Notes under the pieces: model-generated
Seen by the model: only the letters and a program-made list of their open reading frames with translations
The model's database searches: none
Told to the model about the DNA's origin: nothing
Source: Caldicellulosiruptor obsidiansis OB47
GTDB lineage: Bacteria > Bacillota > Thermoanaerobacteria > Caldicellulosiruptorales > Caldicellulosiruptoraceae
DNA length: 64,000 nt
Direction of reading: 5' to 3'
NCBI RefSeq assembly: GCF_000145215.1
Contig: NC_014392.1
Span: 427,501 to 491,500, forward strand
Program-made: the position numbers and the translations under genes
Shown: in pieces, positions 1-22,541 of the stretch
How positions within the stretch are numbered: the first letter of the stretch is position 1
How the letters are laid out: every line of letters begins with the position of its first letter

Positions 1-2652
<2,652 letters not shown>

Positions 2653-2721
2653 GTGAGCTTTCCTCCTATTCACTTGCGAGGCTGCTTAAAAATGTGCTGA
2701 AAAAGATGAATACAGGTAACA

Positions 2722-2841
<120 letters not shown>

Positions 2842-6436: not shown

Positions 6437-7663
6437 ATGAAAAAATTTCTAACAATTTTATTAACACTAATTTTTCTACTTTCCTTGCTTGCAGGTGCGT
6501 TTGTTACACAAAAAGATGTTTTTGCCACTTCCAAGATAACTTTAAAGCTGGGTGCGTGGTCATCTTCTCCTGCTGAGAAGAAGATTGTTCAAAACCAAAT
6601 TGCAGCCTTCAAAAAGCTCTATCCCAATGTCGATATTAAATTAGTTGAAATTGTCGGTGACTATAATCAAAAGATGCAGCTTCTCATGGCATCTAAAACA
6701 GAACCTGATATCTTTTACATGGATTCAATGCCAGCTTGGCAGTACATTGCAAAGAATGTCTTAGAGCCGCTTGACAGCTGGATGAAAAAGTACAATGTCA
6801 AAACAATTGGTTATGAGTCAGCACTTCTCCAGCCATTCATCTACAAAGGAAAAGTGTATGGACTTCCAAAGGATTATAATACATTAGTTTTGTTCTACAA
6901 TAAAGAGATGTTCAAACAGGCAGGTCTTACACAGCCACCAAAGACATGGCAGGAGCTGAAAGAGTATGCTAAAAAACTTACAACAGACAAAGTTGTAGGT
7001 CTTACCATGAACCTTGAACTTGCAAGAATTCAACCTTTTGCATATCAAAATGGGGGTAAAGTATTTGATGGCAACAAGCCAGTCTTTACAGACCTGAAAG
7101 CTTTGGAGGGTTTAAAGTTTGCACTTGACCTTTTCAAAGAAGGAGTATGCAAGACTCCGAAGGACTTAGGCGCTGGCTGGGTTGGAGATGCATTTGCTGA
7201 CAAGAAAGCTGCTATGACAATTGAAGGTGGCTGGATGATTCCATTCTTAAATGACAGAAAGATACCAAAAGACTCATATGGAATTGCAGAACTTCCCGCA
7301 GGACCAGCTGGTAAGTCAACAATGGCATTCACCGTTGCATATGTAATGAGCAAGAATTCAAAGCACAAACCTGAAGCGTTCAAACTTATAAGATTCTTAA
7401 CTGGAGAAGGTGGACAAAAGTATGTGGTTGAAGCAGGTCTGGCACTTCCTTCATTGAAGAGCGCAGGTGTAAGTTTTGCTAAGACTTATCCAGAGAGAAA
7501 AGCGCTTGTTGATGGTGCGAAATATGCGCAGGTCTATTTCTATGGTCTGGATGGCACAAAAGTTGTGGATGTCTTCAACAAAGCATTTGAAGACTATGTA
7601 ATTGGCAAAAAGTATGACCTTAAGAAGAACATTGAGGAAAGAGTAAAGCAAATCATGAAGTAA
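6437..7663 (+). CDS. Sugar ABC transporter substrate-binding protein
   Basis: The 408-residue protein is an extracellular solute-binding protein of the cluster that binds oligosaccharides (MalE-like, SBP family 1). A signal peptide occupies about residues 1-31: a MKKF start, a hydrophobic core and a VFA cleavage region. The mature part has typical phrases such as EPDIFYMDS, VYGLPKDYNTLVLFYNKE and TIEGGWMIPF. AGGAGG precedes ATG 6437. No lipobox cysteine is present, which is unusual for a Gram-positive binding protein (see findings). Two permease genes follow after a stem-loop. No ATPase gene is nearby, so a shared MsmK-type ATPase encoded elsewhere is likely. The phosphorylase neighbours suggest it captures alpha-linked glucose disaccharides. 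Confidence 0.93.
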   Translation: MKKFLTILLTLIFLLSLLAGAFVTQKDVFATSKITLKLGAWSSSPAEKKIVQNQIAAFKKLYPNVDIKLVEIVGDYNQKMQLLMASKTEPDIFYMDSMPAWQYIAKNVLEPLDSWMKKYNVKTIGYESALLQPFIYKGKVYGLPKDYNTLVLFYNKEMFKQAGLTQPPKTWQELKEYAKKLTTDKVVGLTMNLELARIQPFAYQNGGKVFDGNKPVFTDLKALEGLKFALDLFKEGVCKTPKDLGAGWVGDAFADKKAAMTIEGGWMIPFLNDRKIPKDSYGIAELPAGPAGKSTMAFTVAYVMSKNSKHKPEAFKLIRFLTGEGGQKYVVEAGLALPSLKSAGVSFAKTYPERKALVDGAKYAQVYFYGLDGTKVVDVFNKAFEDYVIGKKYDLKKNIEERVKQIMK

Positions 7664-13094: not shown

Positions 13095-13123
13095 ATCATA
13101 CCTTATTATAATTTTACAGTCAA
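13095..13123 (-). promoter_or_regulatory. Promoter of the minus-strand GH65 gene
   Basis: On the minus strand TTGACT (13123-13118) and TATGAT (13100-13095) are separated by 17 bases. The -35 box lies inside the repeat that begins at 13104, while the -10 box lies outside it, so the edge of the cassette repeat falls in the promoter spacer. Confidence 0.7.
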
Positions 13124-13156
13124 TGGCTGGAAGTTACTTTTTAAATATGTTTTGGG

Positions 13157-13185
13157 AATGTTACCGAAATATTTTCGGTAACATT
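13157..13185. promoter_or_regulatory. 29-bp palindrome in cassette copy 1
   Basis: The arms AATGTTACCGAAA (13157-13169) and TTTCGGTAACATT (13173-13185) are perfectly complementary around TAT. No T-run follows, which fits an operator better than a terminator. It sits upstream of the minus-strand GH65 promoter and upstream of the plus-strand cassette. The protein that binds it is unknown. Confidence 0.7.
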
Positions 13186-13582
13186 ATGTTCAAATAAATT
13201 ACAGAGAGAATATTCTTGTTTGTGAGCTACTGTGTTTGACATGGGAAATAATACAAGGTTTACTTGGTAGCCACCGAGGTTTGCTTATGTTTAATTATGA
13301 AAGCGAGAGAAAATTGAAGAAATTTCAAGATATTTGGAGGAAGAAGAATTTTATATTGAAAAAATCGCAAAAATTAATTTAAAAAAAGAAAAGACGGGAT
13401 TGACAATATAAAGATGCGTGAGATAAGATTTGCATATAAATTCCAGGGTATAGGTTAACAAAAAGAGAAGTTTTAGTACAAAATTTTATAAAAAAGATTG
13501 TAACTCAATTAAAAAACTAATGAATAAATTGATGGATGAAATGATGAAATATGATATGGAAGGGTAATGGTGAGATATTAAG

Positions 13583-13711
13583 ATGTATGGCAAGGAAATA
13601 GAAATTGGTGGCAAGAAGTTAGCGGTTGCGAATGAGATTTTGAGGAGTCCAGAGGGTAAGATATACTTTATTGTAGAGGAAGTTGCCAGGTGGTTGTGTG
13701 ACGTTATATAG
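13583..13711 (+). pseudogene. Out-of-frame leader fragment of cassette 1 (stalk-domain-like)
   Basis: ATG 13583 opens a 42-codon frame that begins MYGKEIEIGGKKL and ends KIYFIVEEVARWLCDVI before TAG at 13709. It runs into the larger toxin-like frame (from 13683) with a +1 shift: VARWLC in one frame is followed naturally by TLYRSDISWNGYY in the other. A single extra or missing base near 13697-13702 would join them. The fused pattern faintly resembles copper-amine-oxidase-N-like stalk domains, but this is tentative. Fragments further upstream (13325-13582) also look coding yet are broken by stops. Confidence 0.55.
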
Positions 13712-14483
13712 GAGTGATATAAGTTGGAATGGGTATTATACACCGAAGGTGGCAAGTGGAGGTTCAATAACTTTAAAAGGTAATAGTGAGGCAAGCAGGA
13801 AAGAGAGTAGCAGTGCGAGTATAACACCGGGGTATTCAGACAATTTTGTATTGGGTGATAGAGGTTATTCAGGTGGAATATCAGCAAGTGTCTCGCCAGT
13901 GAGGACAGGTGGATGTTATACTACGCCAAGGATAAATGGAGGAGCTTCTTCAACACCAAAGCCTTCAGGTTCTTCAACTCTAACTGAAGTGAAAACAATA
14001 ACTTCTAATATGAGTAAGGAAGATTTTGTGGCTGCTGTATTTGCAGCTGCAAAAGAAGTAGAAAAGAAAACAGGGATTCCAGCTGCAATTATTACAGCTC
14101 AAGCTATACTTGAATCGAATTATGGAAAGTCTGTTCCCGTTGATAAAAAGACAGGACAATATAGTTACAACTTATTTGGGATAAAAGGGGAAGACCCAGC
14201 AGGAAGTGTTACTGTTACTACAACAGAGTATGTCAATGGTAAAAAAATAAAAATTGAAGATAGATTTAGAGCATATAACAACTTTGAAGAATCAATAAAA
14301 GATCATAGTGAATTTTTAAGAAATAATAAACGATATCAAGAATTATTTAAAACAAGTGATCCTATTAAATGGGCAGAAGGGTTACAAAAAGCTGGTTATG
14401 CTACCGATCCTGAATATAGTAAAAAATTAATCAATATCATGACGACATGGAAACTAATTGATACAAAGGAGAAGAAAAAATGA
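13683..14483 (+). CDS. Cassette 1 effector: shared leader plus GH73-type glucosaminidase domain
   Basis: The 266-codon frame has two parts. The first (about residues 1-100) is the shared Ser/Gly/Thr/Pro-rich leader (SWNGYYTPKVASGGSITLKG and following). The second (about 112-262) is a GH73 peptidoglycan hydrolase domain: PAAIITAQAILESNYGKS with the expected catalytic Glu, then YNLFGIKG, FRAYNNFEESIKDH and LQKAGYATDPEYSKKLINI. It should cut glycan strands of peptidoglycan. The only start in this frame is TTG 13683 without a good ribosome site, and the real N-terminus lies in another frame upstream, so expression is uncertain. No signal peptide is visible. The stop overlaps the start of a lipoprotein gene by 4 bases. 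A polymorphic-toxin role is an inference. Confidence 0.75.
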   Translation: MPGGCVTLYRSDISWNGYYTPKVASGGSITLKGNSEASRKESSSASITPGYSDNFVLGDRGYSGGISASVSPVRTGGCYTTPRINGGASSTPKPSGSSTLTEVKTITSNMSKEDFVAAVFAAAKEVEKKTGIPAAIITAQAILESNYGKSVPVDKKTGQYSYNLFGIKGEDPAGSVTVTTTEYVNGKKIKIEDRFRAYNNFEESIKDHSEFLRNNKRYQELFKTSDPIKWAEGLQKAGYATDPEYSKKLINIMTTWKLIDTKEKKK

Positions 14484-15109
14484 AAAAGGCTTTTTGTAGA
14501 ATAATTGTACTAATTTTAATGTGTATTACTTTGATTTCTTGTTCGTTTACCAAAGGCAATACTACATCTGAAATAAAGCAAACTGTCAATAAATTTGTGC
14601 ATGCAATCAAAACAGGAAATATTGAAGAGTTTGTAAACATTGCAAATCCATATGGGATTTTAGTAATAAGAAACTATATAACTGGTGGATATGGCTTGCG
14701 AGGGAAAAACATTAGAAACTTCTATAAACCGAATGAAATATCTTCAGGTCTTATTTTTCCAGTAGATGGAGAACTGCCAGTAAAACTTTCGGAACTTTTT
14801 CATTCTACAGTTCAATTAGGAGGTAAGATTAATAATATCAAAAAGTTAAAAAGTATTTATTTCACAAATAAGATAGAATATATCCAATATAATAATATAC
14901 AATCAACAAAAGAGATTGTTAACAGAATTTACAAAATACTCAATAAGGCAGGTAAAAATTATGAAACACCTGTAATATATGTACTTGATAATGATGAATT
15001 CTTACTTTGTGAAGCAAAAATTATTAATAGTCTACCTGTTGGAAGTTTTGTTTTGTTCAAAAAATTGAAGGGAGATTACAAAGTTATAGCAGTAATTGAT
15101 TTGAAATAA
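14480..15109 (+). CDS. Predicted lipoprotein, candidate immunity protein of cassette 1
   Basis: The 209-residue product starts with a lipoprotein signal: KK, a hydrophobic core, then the lipobox LISCS with Cys near residue 21. It would therefore sit outside the membrane, where the cognate hydrolase acts. Residues about 30-90 (KQTVNKFVHAIKTGNIEEFV...) resemble the first helices of NTF2-like folds, but this is a weak impression. AAGGAG lies 7-13 bases before ATG 14480, and the ATGA overlap with the effector stop implies coupled translation. No family was recognised with confidence. An inhibitor of the adjacent glucosaminidase is the favoured reading. Confidence 0.75.
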   Translation: MKKAFCRIIVLILMCITLISCSFTKGNTTSEIKQTVNKFVHAIKTGNIEEFVNIANPYGILVIRNYITGGYGLRGKNIRNFYKPNEISSGLIFPVDGELPVKLSELFHSTVQLGGKINNIKKLKSIYFTNKIEYIQYNNIQSTKEIVNRIYKILNKAGKNYETPVIYVLDNDEFLLCEAKIINSLPVGSFVLFKKLKGDYKVIAVIDLK

Positions 15110-15195
15110 AATTTTAAATACTTTATCTTTTTCATTTTGTATTTAAATTTAATTTTCTTTTTCGATATTTGCAAATCAATACAAAGCTATAACAG
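15110..15195. other. Spacer between cassettes 1 and 2
   Basis: AT-rich unique sequence with long T-rich stretches. No gene or clear hairpin is seen. It ends exactly where the second repeat copy begins. Confidence 0.4.
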
Positions 15196-15248
15196 TATTA
15201 TAATTTTACAGTCAATAGCTGGAAGTTACTTTTTAAATATGTATTGGG

Positions 15249-15277
15249 AATGTTACCGAAATATTTTCGGTAAAATT
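15249..15277. promoter_or_regulatory. Palindrome in cassette copy 2, one mismatch
   Basis: Same position in the repeat as 13157-13185. The left arm AATGTTACCGAAA is intact, and the right arm reads TTTCGGTAAAATT, one base off perfect complementarity. Confidence 0.65.
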
Positions 15278-15674
15278 ATGTTCAAATAAATTACAGAGAG
15301 AATATTCTTGTTTGTGAGCTACTGTGTTTGACATGGGGAATAATACAAGGTTTACTTGGTAGCCACCGAGGTTTGCTTATGTTTAATTATGAAAGCGAGA
15401 GAAAATTGAAGAAATTTCAAGATATTTGGAGGAAGAAGAATTTTATATTGAAAAAATCGCAAAAATTAATTTAAAAAAAGAAAAGACGGGATTGACAATA
15501 TAAAGATGCGTGAGATAAGATTTGCATATAAATTCCAGGGTATAGGTTAACAAAAAGAAAAGTTTTAGTACAAAATTTTATAAAAAAGATTGTAACTCAA
15601 TTAAAAAACTAATGAATAAATTGATGGACGAAATGATGAAATATGATATTGAAGGGTAATGGTGAGATATTAAG

Positions 15675-15803
15675 ATGTATGGCAAGGAAATAGAAATTGG
15701 TGGCAAGAAGTTAGTGGTTACGAATGAGATTTTGAGGAGTCCAGAGGGTAAGATATACTTTATTGTAGAGGAAGTTGCCAGGTGGTTGTGTGACGTTATA
15801 TAG
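15675..15803 (+). pseudogene. Out-of-frame leader fragment of cassette 2
   Basis: This is the exact counterpart of 13583-13711. ATG 15675 opens a 42-codon frame that ends in TAG at 15801 and overlaps the effector frame (from TTG 15775) with the same +1 shift. The shift site is base-identical in both copies, so the break predates the duplication or was spread by gene conversion, or it is a functional frameshift. Confidence 0.55.
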
Positions 15804-16707
15804 GAGTGATATAAGTTGGAATGGGTATTATACACCGAAGGTGGCAAGTGAAGGTTCAATAACTTTAAAGGGTAATAGTGAGGCAAGCAGGAAAGAGAGT
15901 AGCAGCGCGAGTATAACACTGGGGTATTCAGACAGTTTTGTATTGGGTGATAGAGGTTATTCAGGTGGAATATCAGCAAGTGTCTCGCCAGTGAGGACAG
16001 GTGGATGTTATACGCCTAAGATAAATGGAGGTGGTTCCTTAACACCGAAACTTTCAGGTTCTCTTTCAATAGCGGATAAATTCAGAGATTTTTTAGATGG
16101 CATTGGACAAAAAGTTGAGGATTTCTCATCTAAAACTGAAAAAATTGTATTAAGAGTAATATTAAAAGATCTTTTAGAAGCGTTAAGACATGCCAGCAGT
16201 AATAGTTTGAAATATTCCATAAATTTTTTAGAACATTCCTTGCAGGATAATCCGAATGATATTATAATTTCCAATGAAAAAAGTGAATTGTCTCAAAAAA
16301 TAAGGGAGAATGAAGATTATAAGAAAGTTAGGAAGTATATTATTTCTATAGCTAAAGAATTACTCCCTGCAATGAAAGTTGGGGAAGAAAAAGAGAAAGA
16401 TCAAAATGGAAAATTTTTTAAAGTAACATTTTCTAAGGAGCAAGATTTAGATCTCTATTTGGCAATAAACAATGCTAACCTGTATTTTAAAAAAGAAAAT
16501 GAAAACACCATAAGTATATGGCTTAAGGATACATATAACTTTGATAACAATGTTAAGAAAGAAAGTTCAATAGTACAAATATTGGACTTGGTAAGGGGAG
16601 AAATAGGTGTTGGTAAATGGCTGAATGAATTTGGAGAAGATTTGCAGAATATGGATGTTGTTAACTCATACGAAATTTTGATCAAAATAGAAACAGTTAA
16701 GTTTTAG
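15775..16707 (+). CDS. Cassette 2 effector: shared leader plus unrecognised C-terminal domain
   Basis: The 310-codon frame begins with the shared Ser/Gly-rich leader (about residues 1-100) and continues into a unique region of about 210 residues, which is helical and charged (ADKFRDFLDGIGQKVEDFSS, then KKVRKYIISIAKELLPAM). It ends with a block containing YLAINNANLYFKKENENT and IWLKDTYNFD. The LKDTYNFD-type ending recalls terminal domains seen in other modular toxins, but no family or catalytic residues could be named. The start problem is the same as in cassette 1 (TTG 15775 without a ribosome site). The downstream membrane protein is its candidate immunity partner. Confidence 0.65.
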   Translation: MPGGCVTLYRSDISWNGYYTPKVASEGSITLKGNSEASRKESSSASITLGYSDSFVLGDRGYSGGISASVSPVRTGGCYTPKINGGGSLTPKLSGSLSIADKFRDFLDGIGQKVEDFSSKTEKIVLRVILKDLLEALRHASSNSLKYSINFLEHSLQDNPNDIIISNEKSELSQKIRENEDYKKVRKYIISIAKELLPAMKVGEEKEKDQNGKFFKVTFSKEQDLDLYLAINNANLYFKKENENTISIWLKDTYNFDNNVKKESSIVQILDLVRGEIGVGKWLNEFGEDLQNMDVVNSYEILIKIETVKF

Positions 16708-16740
16708 TTTCTTTTACAAAAATAAAGGCGGTGATAATCC

Positions 16741-17403
16741 ATGATAGGCAAAAAAACTTTGAGAGGTTTCTGTTTACTAATTGTTTTATCAGTCATGGGT
16801 TTTTTTGTTTTTATAGTTGGTATAATAGTATTTTCGATTTATTTCAATTCCAATCCGCCGAAGCATGTAAAAAACAGAGCTGAATGGATTAGGTTGTATA
16901 AGATATTTAATATAGAGTTTCCTGAACCGATAAAAGAAGAGAAAATTGTAAAATGCGAAACCTACTTTCTTGACCTATTAATTTTTGATGAAAAAGCCAA
17001 ACCCAAATTAGAAAAGCTGACTTCAAACTGGCTTTATATCAGAAATAATAAGATACCAGACAATTTAGATAGGAAAATGCAAGATGACATTAAAACAGTT
17101 TTATATCATGTAAAAACCTTTTCCTTAGGAAAAAAGAAGCTTCCTGATGACTTGAAACCACTTTTTTTCGACGAAAATGGAAAGGAAGATGATGAGTCAA
17201 TTTTGAATGAAAAATTAGTTCAAAATATGCTCTTTGAAATGAAAGAAGGATATAAATTTTATAGATATTACAGAAAAGGCAAGCGCGTATTTGGAGAGCT
17301 TTCTCTTTATTTTGTATATATTCCAAAAATGAATCATTTGTATGTGTATAATGATACTTTTTATACTGAAAGAATAGATTACATTAAAAAAGCTTTACAG
17401 TAG
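16741..17403 (+). CDS. Single-pass membrane protein, candidate immunity protein of cassette 2
   Basis: The 220-residue product has one N-terminal membrane anchor (about residues 8-36, FCLLIVLSVMGFFVFIVGII) and a charged domain of about 180 residues that should face outward. AAAGGCGGTG lies just before ATG 16741, 34 bases after the effector stop. No known family was recognised. Its place and topology match the exported partners of cassettes 1 and 3, although its sequence is unrelated to theirs. Confidence 0.7.
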   Translation: MIGKKTLRGFCLLIVLSVMGFFVFIVGIIVFSIYFNSNPPKHVKNRAEWIRLYKIFNIEFPEPIKEEKIVKCETYFLDLLIFDEKAKPKLEKLTSNWLYIRNNKIPDNLDRKMQDDIKTVLYHVKTFSLGKKKLPDDLKPLFFDENGKEDDESILNEKLVQNMLFEMKEGYKFYRYYRKGKRVFGELSLYFVYIPKMNHLYVYNDTFYTERIDYIKKALQ

Positions 17404-17652
17404 GAATAGGAATCTTAGGCTTTAAAGATATAAGAAAAAGATAAATTAAAATCGACAGAAATGGCGATAAAAATCATTTAAAAACTACTTAAAATGAAAC
17501 TTTTTAGAGTTATGTATATTTTTTAGCGTTGCCATTTTTAAAGTTTTTATAAGTCAAGAGCACTGAATAGAGTATAATGAAGTTGAAAAAAGTTATACTT
17601 GAGACTTGTCAAAAATTTTGTATTTCCAATTTATAACGTAAGTTGTAAAGTT
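17404..17652. other. Gap between cassette 2 and the IS256 remnant
   Basis: AT-rich sequence with no convincing coding frame. It probably contains the end of cassette 2 and the eroded left edge of the insertion element. Confidence 0.4.
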
Positions 17653-18822
17653 GGGTTATATTATTAAGACACTTTCTAATTATTTAGAACTCCATTCTTC
17701 CATTTTGTACGACGCAAGTTTTCTCGCTGTAAGTAAATATTAATTTCTAAAACCTCAACAGACTGAAAATATCCACCTGAGTTTACTTCTTTTTTTTTCA
17801 ATCATACTGTTTGTACTTTCAACGGCGTTTGTGGTATAGATATGTTTCCTCAATTCCTCAGGATATTTCATATGAGTAAGGTAAAACTTTGCTTTTTCTG
17901 ATATTGCTTTAATAAATCGAGTATATTATGAAAGGTATCCATCACAAAGTTCTTTAAATTTCAACACAGCTTCATCGGAGTCAAAAGAAGAGATTTTGAT
18001 TTTGTCTAAACTCTTGTTAAACGCTGAAGCATCTTCTCATGTCTATGTTTTATGCCATTTAGGCTTAAGGTGTACAAAAGCAAGCTAAAGGTCGGCAAAT
18101 GGGTAAGCAAGTTTGATAGCGTCTATAATACCAATAACAATTAGAACTTCCTTAAGCCCTCTTGTAATTAGGTCTTCAAATACTTTTGTTTAAGTAAGCC
18201 TTATTTTCTTTGCCCAAAGAAAGTATAGACACCAAAAAATATTTATTTTACCTTTCTTGAATTGATACCAAGAACAACATAACAAGTAGCCTGTTTAACT
18301 TTAGAACTATCTTTAATTTCACTTCTGAATAACCATCAATAATAAGTGCAAAAGCACTTGTTGGTAGTTCTCTTTGTTTGGGAAACTCAAGCTCATTTTT
18401 AAGGTCTTCTTTGATTTTTAGTATTTCATTTTCGGAATATGGAAGATTCAAAGCTTTCAAAGTTTGAACAAGGGAACGCTCAAGAATAACCATTGGCATA
18501 CTTGCGACATAAGCAGGTAAGTAGGAAAACTATCAACTCTTTTGTAGTGGGAAGAAGAGGATAGAAGGTCGGAAATTGGAAGTAGCGTGTGCGAGGGACA
18601 GAGATTTCAAGACTTGAGGCAGGTGTTGCAAGTTTTACTTTTAGTTGCTTTAGAGCTGGGCGGTTAGGATCATCACAGGAAGCAATACATATTTAATACT
18701 TGCTTCTTTTGCCATGTTTTTAGCAGTCTCAATAATTTCGTTTTTATTCATTCTTAAGTAGCCCCCTTCGATGATTATTTCAATACTAATTATACAGTGG
18801 ACACAATTTTATTTTAACTCCC
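17653..18822 (-). mobile_element. Degenerate IS256 (Mutator) family insertion sequence
   Basis: The interval holds a broken Mutator-type transposase on the minus strand. The right edge is sharp at 18822/18823, where cassette sequence resumes in the middle of the leader (TTGGAATGGGTATTATAC). The inner right end, read inward on the minus strand, begins GGGAGTTAAAATAAAATTG. A left edge at 17653 (GGGTTATATTATTAAG) resembles it only loosely, so it is an estimate. No target-site duplication could be found. Confidence 0.75.
17676..18751 (-). pseudogene. IS256-family transposase pseudogene
   Basis: Read on the minus strand from ATG 18751 (MNKNEIIETAKNMAKEA), the family sequence appears in pieces with several frameshifts. 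LPTSAFALIIDGYSEVK (about 18320-18370) carries an expected catalytic Asp. QATCYVVLGINSRK (about 18245-18290), LRKHIYTTNAVESTNSMIEK (about 17800-17860) and LQRENLRRTKWKNG near 17700 follow. The 83-residue open frame at 18248-18499 is only one of these pieces. At least three frame breaks make it inactive. Confidence 0.85.
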
Positions 18823-19069
18823 TTGGAATGGGTATTATACACCGAAGGTGGCAAGTGGAGGTTCAATAACTTTAAAAGGTAAAAGTGAGGCAAGCAGGAA
18901 AGAGAGTAGCAGTGCGAGTATAACACCGGGGTATTCAGACAATTTTGTATTGGGTGATAGAGGTTATTCAGGTGGAATATCAGCAAGTGTCTCGCCAGTG
19001 AGGACGAGTGGATGTTATACGCCTAAGATAAATGGAGGTGGTTCCTTAACACCGAAACTTTCAGGTTCT
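18823..19069 (+). repeat. Cassette repeat, copy 3 (5'-truncated)
   Basis: About 247 bases of the shared leader are present, starting abruptly at TTGGAATGGG next to the IS256 end. The palindrome, promoter-like boxes and leader start of copies 1 and 2 are missing. Its 3' part (GCCTAAGATAAATGGAGGTGG) matches copy 2 closely. Confidence 0.93.
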
Positions 19070-19720
19070 ACAACACTGCCAACTTTAAATTCTCAACTGT
19101 CTTCCACGAAAATAGATGCTGCTTCAAAAACTCAAAATATTCCAGCAGCAATAAAAAGATTAGAACCAAGCAAAGCTCTATTTGAATTTGTTAAGTCATA
19201 TGAAGGATACTCCTCCATTGCTTATAGAGACAAAGATGGTGTTTGGACTATCGGAATTGGACATGTACTCAGAGACAAAGAATTGGGAGAATATGTTGAC
19301 CTTAAAACTAACAAACCCAAGAAAGCAATAACTGAAGAAAAAGCATATGAGTTTTTCAAAAATGATATCAAAGGTGCAACTGATGCAATAAACAAGTTTA
19401 TGGAAAACAATAAGATTCAACTTTCACAAAATCAATTTGATGCTTTAGTGAGCTTTACTTTCAATGTTGGTTCGGCATGGACAAATAATGAAATGTCTAA
19501 GACTCGTGATGATATAATTAAAGTTGTTAAAAATGGTATTGACACTAAATTAGAAAGAGAGCTCAGAGACGATTTTCTTTCTTGGTCAAAAGCTAAGGGA
19601 CAAGTTTTAGAAGGTTTACAAAGGCGCAGATACGACGAATGGAAGATGTTTGTAAAGGGAGATTACAAGATTACAGATATAAATACTTGGAGAAAGATAA
19701 AAAAGGAAATTGGTCTTTAG
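18848..19720 (+). CDS. Cassette 3 effector: truncated leader plus GH24 (T4-type) lysozyme domain
   Basis: The 290-codon frame starts at GTG 18848 inside the truncated leader. The unique region (about residues 120-285) is a GH24 lysozyme: ALFEFVKSYEGYSSIAYRDK and DGVWTIGIGHV hold the Glu, Asp and Thr at T4 lysozyme spacing, followed by SQNQFDALVSFTFNVGSAW and a C-terminal RRRYDEWKMF. It should cut the MurNAc-GlcNAc bond of peptidoglycan. The upstream leader was lost at the IS256 junction, so this copy has no evident start signal. No phage structural genes lie nearby, which argues against an ordinary prophage endolysin. Confidence 0.78.
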   Translation: MASGGSITLKGKSEASRKESSSASITPGYSDNFVLGDRGYSGGISASVSPVRTSGCYTPKINGGGSLTPKLSGSTTLPTLNSQLSSTKIDAASKTQNIPAAIKRLEPSKALFEFVKSYEGYSSIAYRDKDGVWTIGIGHVLRDKELGEYVDLKTNKPKKAITEEKAYEFFKNDIKGATDAINKFMENNKIQLSQNQFDALVSFTFNVGSAWTNNEMSKTRDDIIKVVKNGIDTKLERELRDDFLSWSKAKGQVLEGLQRRRYDEWKMFVKGDYKITDINTWRKIKKEIGL

Positions 19721-19833
19721 AGATTTTATTAATTTTTGGACTCTGGAAGGAAATGAATAATAAACTACTTTTTGAGGGAAATTTATTTTTATGTTTTGGG
19801 CAAAAACTGACGAAATTAGTGAGGTGGTATCTT

Positions 19834-20583
19834 GTGAAGTTAATAAAAAAAGTTGTCACTACATTCTTAATTATGTTTTTAATTTTGCCTAATGCAGTTG
19901 TTTTAAGCAACGATAAAATTGAAAGAGGCTATTATGATTACAGTGGTAAAAAAGGGAACAACGATGTAGTAATGAGTATATACCTTAACAACTCAAAAGT
20001 TACAGGGTTATATGCTTACAAGGGTGTAAAAAAGTATATAAAGTTAGAAGGAATAATTAAGGAAGAGAAAATAAAATTGAATGAACTCGACCAAAAAGGT
20101 AAAGTAATTGGAACATTTAGAGGTAATATAAAAACAGCAGATATAATTGAGGGAACTTGGAGTAATGGCAAAGATAAGGAAATTTTTAAACTTAAGCTTA
20201 TTGGAAAAAACTACGCTGAATACGGTAGAAGATTCGATTTGGTTGGTTTTCCAGATGAAGAAGTAGTGAAATTCGCTATTAGTGTTCAAAACTATTTAAT
20301 AAGAAACAACAGAAAAGCACTTGCAAAATTAATAGCATATCCTATTGATGTCAAAATTAATGGTAAAAAGAAAACTATAAAAAATGAAAAAGAATTTGTT
20401 AATAGTTTTGACAAGATATTCAATGTTAATTTAAAAAAAGCAATTATCAAAGCTGAGCCTTTGTTTATGTTTGTAAACCAATATGGAGCTATGTTGGGCG
20501 AAAGTGGATATAACGTTTGGTTTGCAGCAGTAGAAAAGAAGGATAAAAAGCACTACTTGTTAATTCATACTATTAATAACTAA
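19834..20583 (+). CDS. Exported protein, candidate immunity protein (lysozyme inhibitor) of cassette 3
   Basis: GTG 19834 is preferred: GAGGTGG lies 7 bases upstream and the product then begins with a signal peptide (KLIKKVVTTFLIMFLILPN, cleavage after about residue 26). An in-frame start at 19639 would overlap the lysozyme gene. The mature protein (about 220 residues) has a beta-rich first half with Gly/Tyr repeats (GYYDYSGKKG, KVIGTFRGN, EGTWSNGKDKE), and a second half (about 145-249) resembling NTF2-like domains (VQNYLIRNNRKALAKLIAYP). Location outside the membrane and position after a lysozyme suggest an inhibitor. The specific fold is a guess. Confidence 0.72.
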   Translation: MKLIKKVVTTFLIMFLILPNAVVLSNDKIERGYYDYSGKKGNNDVVMSIYLNNSKVTGLYAYKGVKKYIKLEGIIKEEKIKLNELDQKGKVIGTFRGNIKTADIIEGTWSNGKDKEIFKLKLIGKNYAEYGRRFDLVGFPDEEVVKFAISVQNYLIRNNRKALAKLIAYPIDVKINGKKKTIKNEKEFVNSFDKIFNVNLKKAIIKAEPLFMFVNQYGAMLGESGYNVWFAAVEKKDKKHYLLIHTINN

Positions 20584-20846: not shown

Positions 20847-21003
20847 ACATATCTTAAGTCATTATTTGTGCGTATTATAAAGACATTTTGCTTGTAACAA
20901 TAATTGTTTTTGTAACAAACTATTATTGACTTTTTTTTTTTTGATAAATTTGACTTCAGAAAATTTTATACTATTACGCTTAAAGGAGGATGGAGGGGTA
21001 AAA

Positions 21004-21381
21004 ATGAATAGTATCCAAAAAATAGCTCATCATATTGTAAGTTCTATTGCTAATGATTTACGAGAAAATACGTTGACAAATATAGTATCAATTGCAGCAG
21101 GTGGAATAGGTGGAGGAGTGAAAGCGTACAGGGCTGCCACAAGTGGTTTTACAATGCTGGAGAGAAAGGTTGCAAGTAAAACAGTAAGTGGAGTATTGAA
21201 AGGTATGGGCGAAGGATATCTTTTCGGGAAAGGCACAGTAAGTGTTATTGCGACTGTTACTAATAAAATAGCAAGTGTAGAAAAGTGGTTTGATAATACC
21301 AAAGTGGGTAAAGCAATTGATAATGCCATCACAAAAGTGGAGTATGGATTACACAAACTTATTGGTGGAGGAACATATTAG
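21004..21381 (+). CDS. Small glycine-rich protein, unknown function
   Basis: The 125-residue product starts at ATG 21004, with AAAGGAGG at 20983 and GGAGGGG closer to the start. It contains IAAGGIGGGVKAYRAATSG and a further mildly hydrophobic, Gly-rich stretch (VSGVLKGMGEGYLFGKGTVS), then an amphipathic helix VEKWFDNTKVGKAIDNAI and a GGGTY end. The pattern recalls small proteins associated with secretion or bacteriocins, but no family was recognised. It is the first of a run of small genes at the right end of the cassette island. Confidence 0.7.
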   Translation: MNSIQKIAHHIVSSIANDLRENTLTNIVSIAAGGIGGGVKAYRAATSGFTMLERKVASKTVSGVLKGMGEGYLFGKGTVSVIATVTNKIASVEKWFDNTKVGKAIDNAITKVEYGLHKLIGGGTY

Positions 21382-21548
21382 TTAAAATATTTAAAAAATA
21401 CGAAAAGAATATTATAAGGCAAATACGTAAAACAAGAGAAATTCTTTTTCATATGATGTTGATGTTTGTTATTTTAGTTGTTTTAGTAATTTTGATTATT
21501 GTGAGCAGCTTAATAAGAGTACTTCTGAAAGATTTGAAAGTAGAGTAG
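21375..21548 (+). CDS. Small membrane protein, start unresolved
   Basis: This frame, open to TAG at 21546-21548, gives a basic segment (VKIFKKYEKNIIRQIRKTRE) and then one strong membrane helix (MMLMFVILVVLVILIIVSSL). GGTGGAGG (21364-21371) overlaps the end of the previous gene, but no ATG, GTG or TTG stands at a suitable distance; only ATA codons do. The first ATG in frame is at 21453 and would give a 31-residue peptide. A basic head plus a single helix is typical of small membrane peptides. Translation is uncertain. Confidence 0.35.
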   Translation: MLVKIFKKYEKNIIRQIRKTREILFHMMLMFVILVVLVILIIVSSLIRVLLKDLKVE

Positions 21549-21653
21549 CTTTAGTATATAGGTGCTTTAATTATATGTGCTTATTGTATTTAAGAGAAAA
21601 TTTTCAAAGTTCCTTTTTCTAATGAATAGCGGGCATAGTTCACAAAATAAAAA

Positions 21654-21860
21654 ATGGTATTGCAAGTTTTAGAGAAGGCAAGTAACAGAATAAATGAAGA
21701 TGGGGAATTTAGGAAAGCAAAAAGTGACAGTACAAAAGCCCGGCTCATTATTATTTTACAAAGAGCTGTAATGGAAGAAAAATATTTATTTGATATAAGA
21801 GAAGTACTGGGTAGCAACAATAGTTCCAGACACTTGATGGAGGAGCATATTAAAATGTAG
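21654..21860 (+). CDS. Small charged ORF, doubtful
   Basis: The 68-residue frame begins at ATG 21654, two codons after an in-frame stop, without a good ribosome site. The product is charged and helical (LEKASNRINEDGEFRKAKSD). It ends 23 bases before the next small gene. It is included because the spacing fits a run of small genes, but it could be chance. Confidence 0.35.
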   Translation: MVLQVLEKASNRINEDGEFRKAKSDSTKARLIIILQRAVMEEKYLFDIREVLGSNNSSRHLMEEHIKM

Positions 21861-21883
21861 ATAAAAAAGGAAGGGAAAATGTC

Positions 21884-22135
21884 ATGAGTAAAAAATTCAA
21901 GGCAAAGGATATTCTTTTTCGAATATCCATAGTATTTATTATTTTTATAACTATTTTAACAGGGTTTATCGTTATACCTGTTTTGGGCAGTTTAATAAAT
22001 GTAGCACTAAAAGCCTTGAAAATTGAATGGCTTTGGTCAGTAGCTGCTTTTGGGTTGGTTGGTTATTATGTTTACAAATTTGTATCAAAGAGAATAAATA
22101 ACAGAAAACTAAGGAAAGAAGGGATGCAAGATTGA
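21884..22135 (+). CDS. Small two-helix membrane protein, unknown function
   Basis: The 83-residue product starts at ATG 21884 with AAGGAAGGG upstream. Two membrane segments are evident (about 12-35, ISIVFIIFITILTGFIVIPV, and 48-66, WSVAAFGLVGYYVYKFV), flanked by Lys/Arg-rich ends. It lies between small ORFs of the cassette island, and the next frame overlaps its stop. No family was recognised; an anchor or immunity-like role is only a guess. Confidence 0.6.
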   Translation: MSKKFKAKDILFRISIVFIIFITILTGFIVIPVLGSLINVALKALKIEWLWSVAAFGLVGYYVYKFVSKRINNRKLRKEGMQD

Positions 22136-22184
22136 AATTGTTACAATTTATTCTTGTAATGGTTTAGACGAAAATTATCAACCA

Positions 22185-22541
22185 GTGAATATAAAAAAGG
22201 TGTTCAGTGAAGTAGATGACTTTATAATTGTATGGTGTCAGGCTAAGAATATTAAAAAGGAAAGCCAAGTGTCAATGGAATGGTATAATCCAGAAGGAAA
22301 ACTTGTATTTACAATAAACATTGATGTAAAGCCTACAAACCAAGAACATCCTTATAGATATTTTTGGAGTGTTATGAGGTATAATTTTATAAATGCAATC
22401 AAAGGTAAAGTGTTTGGTGTATGGAAAGTAAAAATAAAACCTTTTGACATTGAATATGAATTTGTAATAAAAGATTTAAAGAGTTATAGTTTATTTAAAG
22501 AAAGCAAAACAATTAGTGGAGTACTTGATGAAATAGTTTGA
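22185..22541 (+). CDS. Conserved-looking hypothetical protein; true start probably upstream
   Basis: From GTG 22185 the frame encodes 118 residues with features of a beta-rich small domain (QVSMEWYNPEGKLVFTINID, FGVWKVKIKPF). The open frame continues upstream to overlap the previous gene, and the extra residues (IEIVTIYSCNGLDENYQP) look coding. A start at ATT 22131, just after GGAAAGAAGGG and overlapping the previous stop, would include them. The TTG at 22132 is in another frame. Either a rare ATT start or an indel near 22131 is possible. Function is unknown. Confidence 0.55.
   Translation: MNIKKVFSEVDDFIIVWCQAKNIKKESQVSMEWYNPEGKLVFTINIDVKPTNQEHPYRYFWSVMRYNFINAIKGKVFGVWKVKIKPFDIEYEFVIKDLKSYSLFKESKTISGVLDEIV

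What the first reader, a model, noticed from the sequence alone, without database searches (positions are those of the whole stretch)
13104..20583. Tandem polymorphic-toxin-like cassettes with peptidoglycan hydrolase effectors and exported partner proteins
Three cassettes share one leader module but carry different C-terminal domains: a GH73-type glucosaminidase, an unrecognised domain and a GH24 lysozyme. Each is followed by an unrelated small protein that is a lipoprotein, a single-pass membrane protein or a secreted protein. Interchangeable toxin tips plus a tip-specific partner are the hallmarks of polymorphic toxin/immunity arrays. Placing all partners outside the membrane is the right location to protect a cell wall. 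No phage structural genes or conventional secretion genes (LXG, WXG100, Rhs, CDI) lie nearby. I know of no named system matching this leader.
Basis: partly seen in the sequence, partly recalled or inferred. Interest (0 to 1): 0.88.

Follow-up and report, generated by a model that had tools for sequence, protein, structure and literature searches.

The report
Swappable wall-cutting toxins with antidotes
This stretch looks like a store of interchangeable cell-wall-cutting toxins, each followed by its own antidote gene, that this group of bacteria reshuffles between two chromosome sites and probably uses against close relatives; how the toxins leave the cell is not known.

Summary
Three cassettes share a leader segment, carry different C-terminal tips (GH73, unknown, GH24) and are each followed by an unrelated, membrane-targeted partner. 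Comparison with the 12 other genomes held for the family supports the toxin/immunity reading and corrects the anatomy. The window copies are 5'-truncated orphan modules. One relative (G007) keeps the intact unit (75-aa protein, GT4 glycosyltransferase, full-length leader plus GH24, partner) with a truncated GH73 orphan downstream. A second chromosomal locus, with a largely different leader, carries SleB-like, M23, GH24 and the same unknown tip. Under both leaders the same partner family follows the same tip: 23 of 24 tip rows, the exception being a short fragment; 12 further partners stand alone. One cassette is a mosaic of the two loci. The unknown tip resembles the C-terminus of an Rhs protein that is followed by a lipoprotein-like gene. 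In the genomes searched neither leader appeared outside the genus. Leaders lack a Sec-type N-terminus and WXG100 is absent (0 of 13 over cut-off), so delivery is unexplained. Toxicity and protection are untested. Verdict: polymorphic toxin/immunity array, a new variant of a known kind; the unknown export route and the wall-directed tips are the interest.

The parts
13104..13973 (+). 5' repeat unit of cassette 1 (upstream region, remnant of a 75-aa gene, truncated leader), repeated at 15196-16062
   Evidence: 97.0% over 870 columns
13583..13711 (+). remnant ORF: start of the 75-aa gene, joined out of frame to the leader
13683..13973 (+). leader-1 remnant, copy 1 (C-terminal ~95 aa of a ~230-aa leader)
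   Evidence: 13683-14013 matches G007 7234-7561; tblastn q126-232/232
13986..14483 (+). tip 1: GH73 glucosaminidase domain
   Evidence: PF01832 E 6.6e-38; tblastn coordinates
14480..15109 (+). partner 1: predicted lipoprotein, putative immunity
   Evidence: homologue follows the GH73 tip in G007 too
15775..16062 (+). leader-1 remnant, copy 2
16060..16707 (+). tip 2: unnamed domain (LQD.P ... DL..A ... D.Y.F), related to the C-terminus of an Rhs protein in G093 and a protein with a signal-peptide-like start in G027
16741..17403 (+). partner 2: membrane-anchored protein, putative immunity
   Evidence: its family follows tip 2 in 9 of 10 tip-2 rows, the tenth being a 52-aa fragment
17601..18641 (-). 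transposase-like remnant upstream of cassette 3 (IS256/mutator type by recall, not scanned against a family library)
   Evidence: 73% DNA match to a 363-aa ORF region in G002; junctions with the leader differ, so probably separate insertions
18823..19077 (+). leader-1 remnant, copy 3
19154..19720 (+). tip 3: GH24 lysozyme domain
   Evidence: PF00959 E 2.8e-29; tblastn coordinates
19834..20583 (+). partner 3: predicted secreted protein, putative immunity
   Evidence: its family follows GH24 in 4 of 4 rows

Best explanation
A polymorphic toxin/immunity locus whose toxins are mostly cell-wall hydrolases. An intact toxin has a Ser-rich leader with no Sec-type start, plus a C-terminal tip that attacks peptidoglycan outside a cell. 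The next gene encodes a lipoprotein, membrane-anchored or secreted protein that sits on the producer's outer face and blocks the matching tip. The window holds three orphan modules (truncated leader, tip, partner) plus homology arms. These could recombine onto an intact leader to change the deployed toxin, or persist because their partners protect against relatives that still use that tip. Shown: shared leader, different tips, partner following tip under two leaders, tip exchange between loci, orphan arrays, truncation, purifying selection. Inferred: export, killing of relatives, inhibition by the partner, silence of the truncated copies, any role of the GT4 enzyme.
For: Tip to first downstream partner cognate in 23 of 24 rows from 9 genomes. 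Leader 1 with GH73, tip2, GH24; leader 2 with M23, SleB-like, GH24, tip2. G002 locus-1 tip2 cassette: first ~290 nt closest to the G000 leader-1 copy (87-91%), then closest to the G002 leader-2 copy (91-93%) through the rest of the tip. Tip2 and partner distances correlate, r 0.74, 4 of 5000 permutations. In G007 the intact unit and its downstream orphan share 422 bp (94.5%) plus 359 bp (97.8%), the orphan lacking the GT4 gene and leader start. Of 35 partner rows, 12 lack a tip and 3 more follow only an M23 scrap of 23 or about 58 aa. Tip2-like domain after an Rhs core, with a lipoprotein-like gene next. dN/dS 0.12-0.36 in 16 of 17 comparisons. One or two members of each of the five partner families were computed and all 8 have hydrophobic N-termini.
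Against: No toxicity, export or protection data. In 13 genomes an intact leader 1 was seen only in G007, and many leader-2 copies carry frameshifts or stops, so much of the system may be decaying. By the criterion tips are intact in 15 of 22 rows and partners in 23 of 35 (22 after dropping an artefact row), so partners are not better preserved than tips. M23 tips and partners do not co-vary (r 0.10, n 4). M23 tips keep HxxxD but seem to lack two histidines of active LytM-type enzymes (motif recalled; sequences). The GH24-partner profile also matches 11 genomes outside the genus; in the 4 loci opened (about 3 kb each, read by eye) no lysozyme gene lies beside it, so that fold is not immunity-specific. 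The Rhs/tip2 link is weak by E-value (0.005) and rests on one genome.
Confidence: 0.85

Rival explanations
1. Prophage-derived lysis genes: endolysin domains with holin-, spanin- or inhibitor-like partners left by a degraded phage.
For: GH73 and GH24 tips match PHROG endolysin families; transposase-like remnants lie in the region.
Against: No phage structural gene was recognised by eye from 70-residue prefixes of the ORFs of 100 aa or more listed for the whole window. Tblastn of the cassette-2 protein found nothing among 50,697 phage records (the other cassettes were not tried), and leader 2 nothing in viral contigs. Lysis genes do not explain five tip classes on two leaders with a tip-specific partner, nor an Rhs protein carrying a tip-2-like domain.
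Confidence: 0.04
2. House-keeping wall enzymes with dedicated inhibitors or chaperones (as SleB with YpeB, recalled) used in sporulation, flagellar assembly or growth, not in conflict.
For: The GH73, SleB-like and M23 tips also match, below cut-off, models of FlgJ, spore SleB and SpoIIQ; the partners are predicted extracytoplasmic.
Against: Patchy: partner families in 9 of 13 family genomes. Tip exchange between leaders and loci, tandem orphan partners and frequent decay do not fit a conserved physiological role.
Confidence: 0.08
3. A relic: once a polymorphic toxin system, now non-functional in this genome because all three window copies lost their leader start and both G000 locus-2 copies are disrupted. 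(Compatible with the best explanation as to origin.)
For: Window leaders truncated; both leader-2 cassettes of G000 are frameshifted.
Against: Tip and partner reading frames in the window are intact and dN/dS is 0.12-0.36 in the comparisons that use window tips and partners; partners may still protect.
Confidence: 0.3

Closest known systems
Polymorphic toxin systems in general (Zhang et al. 2012, PMC3482391; passages, outline, section 3 part 1, sections 37 and 41 read)
   Same: Constant 5' part, variable C-terminal toxin domain, toxin-then-immunity gene order, strings of leftover immunity genes, standalone cassettes. A glucosaminidase toxin domain (PF01832) is already listed there.
   Different: Neither leader matched a known family, so neither is recognisable as one of the listed trafficking domains; both are without a Sec-type start; four of five tips have wall-hydrolase-type domains. 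The one mention of Caldicellulosiruptor in the held text is a table note on ZU5 in Sec-exported toxins.
MafB of Neisseria (genus-restricted N-terminal domain; as described in PMC3482391 section 37)
   Same: A conserved N-terminal module restricted to one genus with polymorphic C-termini.
   Different: MafB has a signal peptide and a lipoprotein (MafA) gene upstream; here there is no signal peptide and leader 1 has a GT4 gene upstream.
Orphan cdiA-CT/cdiI and rhs-CT/rhsI modules (PMC4927057, passages read)
   Same: Displaced toxin/immunity pairs downstream of the full gene, keeping homology to it, with transposases between.
   Different: No Rhs repeats or CDI-type domain recognised in the scanned proteins; mostly wall-directed tips; the orphans also carry upstream homology from a separate 75-aa gene.
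LXG toxins of the type VII (Esx) system, e.g. TelC (PMC5555719, passages read)
   Same: Polymorphic toxins of Firmicutes; TelC attacks the wall precursor lipid II.
   Different: No WXG100 protein over cut-off in any of 13 genomes; no LXG match in the Pfam scans.
Rhs toxins
   Same: A tip2-like domain is the C-terminus of an Rhs core protein in G093, followed by a lipoprotein-like gene.
   Different: The leaders here contain no RHS repeats.

Membership tests
Polymorphic toxin/immunity systems | One conserved N-terminal module joined to different C-terminal toxin domains | tested here: met
   Leader 1 with 3 tips, leader 2 with 4 tips
Polymorphic toxin/immunity systems | A tip-specific gene directly downstream | tested here: met
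   23 of 24 rows; exception a 52-aa tip-2 fragment
Polymorphic toxin/immunity systems | Tip/immunity modules exchanged by recombination | tested here: met
   Mosaic cassette in G002; truncated orphan with homology arms in G007
Polymorphic toxin/immunity systems | Leftover immunity genes and orphan cassettes | tested here: met
   12 orphan partners of 35; M23 scraps before 3 others
Polymorphic toxin/immunity systems | Toxin domain found in an independently recognised polymorphic toxin | tested here: inconclusive
   Tip2-like domain on an Rhs core protein, E 0.005, motifs shared, one genome
Polymorphic toxin/immunity systems | Leader assigned to a known secretion route | tested here: not met
   No Sec-type N-terminus, no WXG100, no family hit to leader 1 or leader 2
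Polymorphic toxin/immunity systems | Tip kills, partner protects specifically | not testable with these tools
   needs bench work
LXG / type VII secreted toxins | LXG domain and WXG100 partners with an Esx apparatus | tested here: not met
   PF06013 0 of 13 over cut-off; the control search rings in 2 of 14 named genomes, 1 over cut-off; no LXG hit. EssC itself was not searched
Rhs toxins | RHS/YD repeats before the tip | tested here: not met
   No RHS hit in the cassette proteins scanned, full-length leaders included
Prophage endolysin module | Phage structural or lysis gene context | tested here: not met
   ORF prefixes of the whole window read by eye; no phage-record match for the cassette-2 protein
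CDI (CdiB/CdiA two-partner) toxins | CdiB-type outer-membrane transporter and TpsA-type leader | not tested
   No dedicated search; only the absence of such hits in the family scans of the cassette proteins

The most novel reading that the evidence does not exclude
The two leaders, without a Sec-type start, Ser-rich and sharing only a short motif around NEFYGK(I/V)VY, are signals for an undescribed export or surface-display route in a bacterium without recognisable WXG100 proteins. For leader 1 the route may be coupled to glycosylation by the adjacent GT4 enzyme. The flagellar export machine (FlhA in 13 of 13 genomes) is one candidate not excluded. It would deliver exchangeable wall hydrolases to kin, with immunity placed on the producer's outer face.
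Probability: 0.35. Interest if true: 0.82.

Novelty: new variant of a known kind. Interest (0 to 1): 0.62.

Why it matters
It would add an arsenal aimed mainly at the cell wall, seen so far in one genus, to the polymorphic toxins. It offers a natural set in which the same tip/immunity pair can be tested under two different leaders, and it poses a clear question about protein export in a bacterium without the usual Esx substrates. Lysozyme, glucosaminidase and M23-type domains with matched inhibitors, probably heat-stable if the genus is the thermophile I take it for, could also be useful reagents.

Tried and rejected
Leader searches outside the genus: genome contigs (leader 1; leader 2) and viral contigs (leader 2) gave nothing; class for leader 2 gave 9 of 37 genomes, all one genus; a phylum sample for leader 1 gave 6 of 398, all one genus. 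The two genome-contig scans also failed to return the genus itself (records near the window's genome may be left out), so they say little. The cassette-2 protein against phages and plasmids: no match; the G093 Rhs tip against plasmids: no match; in the 10 genomes of its class only G093 itself.

Structures: partner 3 mean pLDDT 61 (beta-rich first half; Foldseek hits weak and mixed, none at E <= 0.001); tip 2 mean pLDDT 46, unusable; a PDB sequence search with the tip-2 profile gave only weak hits, best E 0.18. No fold claim is made. Weak tip-2 profile hits in G369, G259, G204 and G062 looked like unrelated proteins on reading and were dropped; those in G027 and G093 were kept.

A shared IS insertion before window copy 3 and the G002 copy was considered and rejected: the junctions with the leader lie 56 columns apart. 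I first guessed that a small deletion in the leader frame explained the frame break near 13700; the G007 comparison showed instead a large deletion joining two genes.

Literature: searches listed no paper whose title or shown abstract describes these loci in the held open-access library; hits were read only as said above, most subscription papers are not held, and the list was cut at 10 of 136, at 15 of 34.
Full report
WHAT IS THERE. The window lies in a 2.53-Mb single-contig genome, G000. Its gene content suggests Caldicellulosiruptor, but that name is recalled and no call gave it. Three cassettes lie at 13104-20583 between a GH65-type phosphorylase gene and an aldo/keto reductase gene (names by eye). 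Copies 1 and 2 share 870 columns at 97.0%, and the leader segment recurs in copy 3. Tips 1 and 3 are GH73 (PF01832, 6.6e-38) and GH24 (PF00959, 2.8e-29); tip 2 and the three partners match no family in Pfam, PHROGs or NCBIfam at a meaningful level.

THE INTACT FORM. G007 has, at the same chromosomal site, a 75-aa gene, a GT4 glycosyltransferase gene (Glycos_transf_1 5e-24; also GT4-conflict PF20706, 28.6 bits against a cut-off of 26), a 429-aa protein (about 230-aa leader 1 plus GH24) and the GH24 partner. About 2 kb downstream lies a truncated GH73 cassette. That orphan shares 422 bp upstream (94.5%) and 359 bp of leader (97.8%) with the intact unit but lacks the GT4 gene and the leader start. 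Window copies 1 and 2 have the same left junction. The window cassettes are therefore orphan modules of a longer system, and in copies 1 and 2 the 75-aa start runs out of frame into the leader remnant. Full-length leader 1 and leader 2 match no Pfam, NCBIfam or PHROG family; the only significant hits of the 429-aa protein lie in its GH24 part.

A SECOND LOCUS. Weak leader hits led to a second chromosomal locus beside ilvC/ilvB/leuA-type genes (by eye) in G000, G001, G003, G008 and G010, and then in G002, G004 and G009. Its leader is about 100 aa (consensus) and shares with leader 1 a short motif around NEFYGK(I/V)VY. It carries tips of SleB type (PG_binding_1 5e-11; Hydrolase_2 4e-4 and NCBIfam spore_SleB 2e-15, both below their cut-offs), M23 (4.9e-13), GH24, and tip 2. 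Partner families occur in 9 of 13 family genomes.

TIP AND PARTNER TRAVEL TOGETHER. I mapped five tips, five partners and two leaders by tblastn on 15 fetched stretches; rows came from 9 genomes. For the 24 tip rows the first downstream partner is cognate in 23. The exception is a 52-aa tip-2 fragment in G001 (40 bits; by the tip-2 profile a true remnant, E 3.7e-10). Permuting labels gives a mean of 6.96 matches and 0 of 100000 at 23. Orthologous copies make this number too favourable; the more telling fact is that GH24 and tip 2 keep their partner family under both leaders. Twelve of 35 partner rows lack a tip, and three more M23 partners follow only a C-terminal scrap of an M23 tip (about 58, 58 and 23 aa).

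EXCHANGE. The G002 locus-1 tip-2 cassette is most like the G000 leader-1 copy for about 290 nt (87-91%) and then most like the G002 leader-2 copy (91-93%) to the end of the tip; in the middle of the partner the two are about equal, and at its end the leader-2 copies are again closer. Tip-2 and partner distances correlate (r 0.74, 4 of 5000 permutations, n 9). GH24 gives r 0.89 (n 4, untested) and M23 gives r 0.10 (n 4), so M23 pairs show no such signal.

SELECTION AND DECAY. dN/dS is 0.12-0.36 in 16 of 17 comparisons, two of them with orphan partners; the other is 0.69, between two similar M23 partners that follow only a tip scrap. By a simple open-frame criterion 15 of 22 tips and 23 of 35 partners are intact; one counted partner (G003 14583) is a merging artefact, so 22 (rows under 60 bits left out). 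Partners are thus not better preserved than tips, which does not favour retention for immunity alone.

WHAT TIP 2 IS. The tip-2 profile hit 10 of 398 phylum genomes at E <= 0.01, four of them in the genus. Of the six others, two make sense on reading: a 284-aa protein with a signal-peptide-like start in G027 (E 4e-4), and the C-terminus of an Rhs core protein in G093 (E 0.005; Rhs core to residue 438 of 629), whose next gene encodes a 118-aa lipoprotein-like protein. The four aligned proteins share LQD.P, DL..A and D.Y.F. I read tip 2 as a toxin domain acting outside the membrane; its chemistry is unknown.

WHERE THE PARTNERS SIT AND HOW THE TOXINS LEAVE. The eight partners computed, from all five families, have a hydrophobic N-terminal stretch (15-residue Kyte-Doolittle mean 2.36 or more); the four leaders computed reach at most 1.27. 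WXG100 is over cut-off in 0 of 13 genomes and FlhA is present in 13 of 13, so an Esx route is disfavoured and flagellar-type export is possible but untested. In a Gram-positive-type cell the wall is exposed, so a surface-displayed or released hydrolase need not enter the target cell; an inhibitor on the outer face is where self-protection is needed. This step is inference.

COMPARISON WITH THE KNOWN. Zhang et al. 2012 (PMC3482391; passages, outline, section 3 part 1 and sections 37 and 41 read) describe the toxin-then-immunity order, strings of leftover immunity genes, and genus-restricted N-terminal domains such as MafB-N. PMC4927057 (passages) describes orphan CDI modules that keep homology to the parent gene. 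This locus behaves like both. It fails tests for LXG/Esx and Rhs leaders. It is best filed as a polymorphic toxin system with two new leaders of unassigned route.

LIMITS. There is no wet evidence. Only one intact leader 1 is known here. The M23 tip lacks two histidines expected in active LytM enzymes (recalled motif; sequences) and may bind rather than cut. The GH24-partner profile also matches 11 genomes outside the genus; four loci of about 3 kb were opened and, by eye, none shows a lysozyme gene beside it.

Noticed in passing
L018 15111-18452; L021 11213-14397; L050 about 14592-17975 (reverse complement): A 475-aa protein (two pieces in L021) with a disordered Ser/Asn-rich start and a pretoxin-looking end (by eye), followed by a 374-aa protein with weak TPR hits and a 227-aa protein with an AMPK1_CBM domain, occurs in G002 at both loci and in G009; it may be a third leader type.
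   Followed up: partly
window 20926-22541: Small genes (about 125-, 83- and 118-aa products) of unknown function downstream of the cassettes, conserved in G007; by eye the 118-aa product resembles the end of the CBM-type protein above.
   Followed up: no
L046, L048 (reverse complement, about 13.4-19.4 kb); L045 15909-17773: Tandem arrays of divergent paralogues of about 203 aa with an N-terminal membrane segment beside the second locus; possibly another immunity-like expansion.
   Followed up: no
L052 8551-9300: A lone GH24-partner gene in G004, away from both loci, with radical-SAM-like and ABC-transporter-like genes (by eye) of a possible peptide cluster on the same stretch.
   Followed up: no
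L075 1003-3270: Rhs core protein with a tip-2-like C-terminal domain and a downstream lipoprotein-like gene: a candidate new Rhs toxin/immunity pair.
   Followed up: partly
L053 12132-13683; L048 16381-17722 and L049 12339-14005 (both reverse complement): A papain-like (by eye) protease-type gene beside a conserved exported protein of about 328 aa near locus 2 in several genomes.
   Followed up: no
window 1-2840: 23S and 5S rRNA genes at the window start; the long minus-strand ORFs there are very likely not genes.
   Followed up: yes
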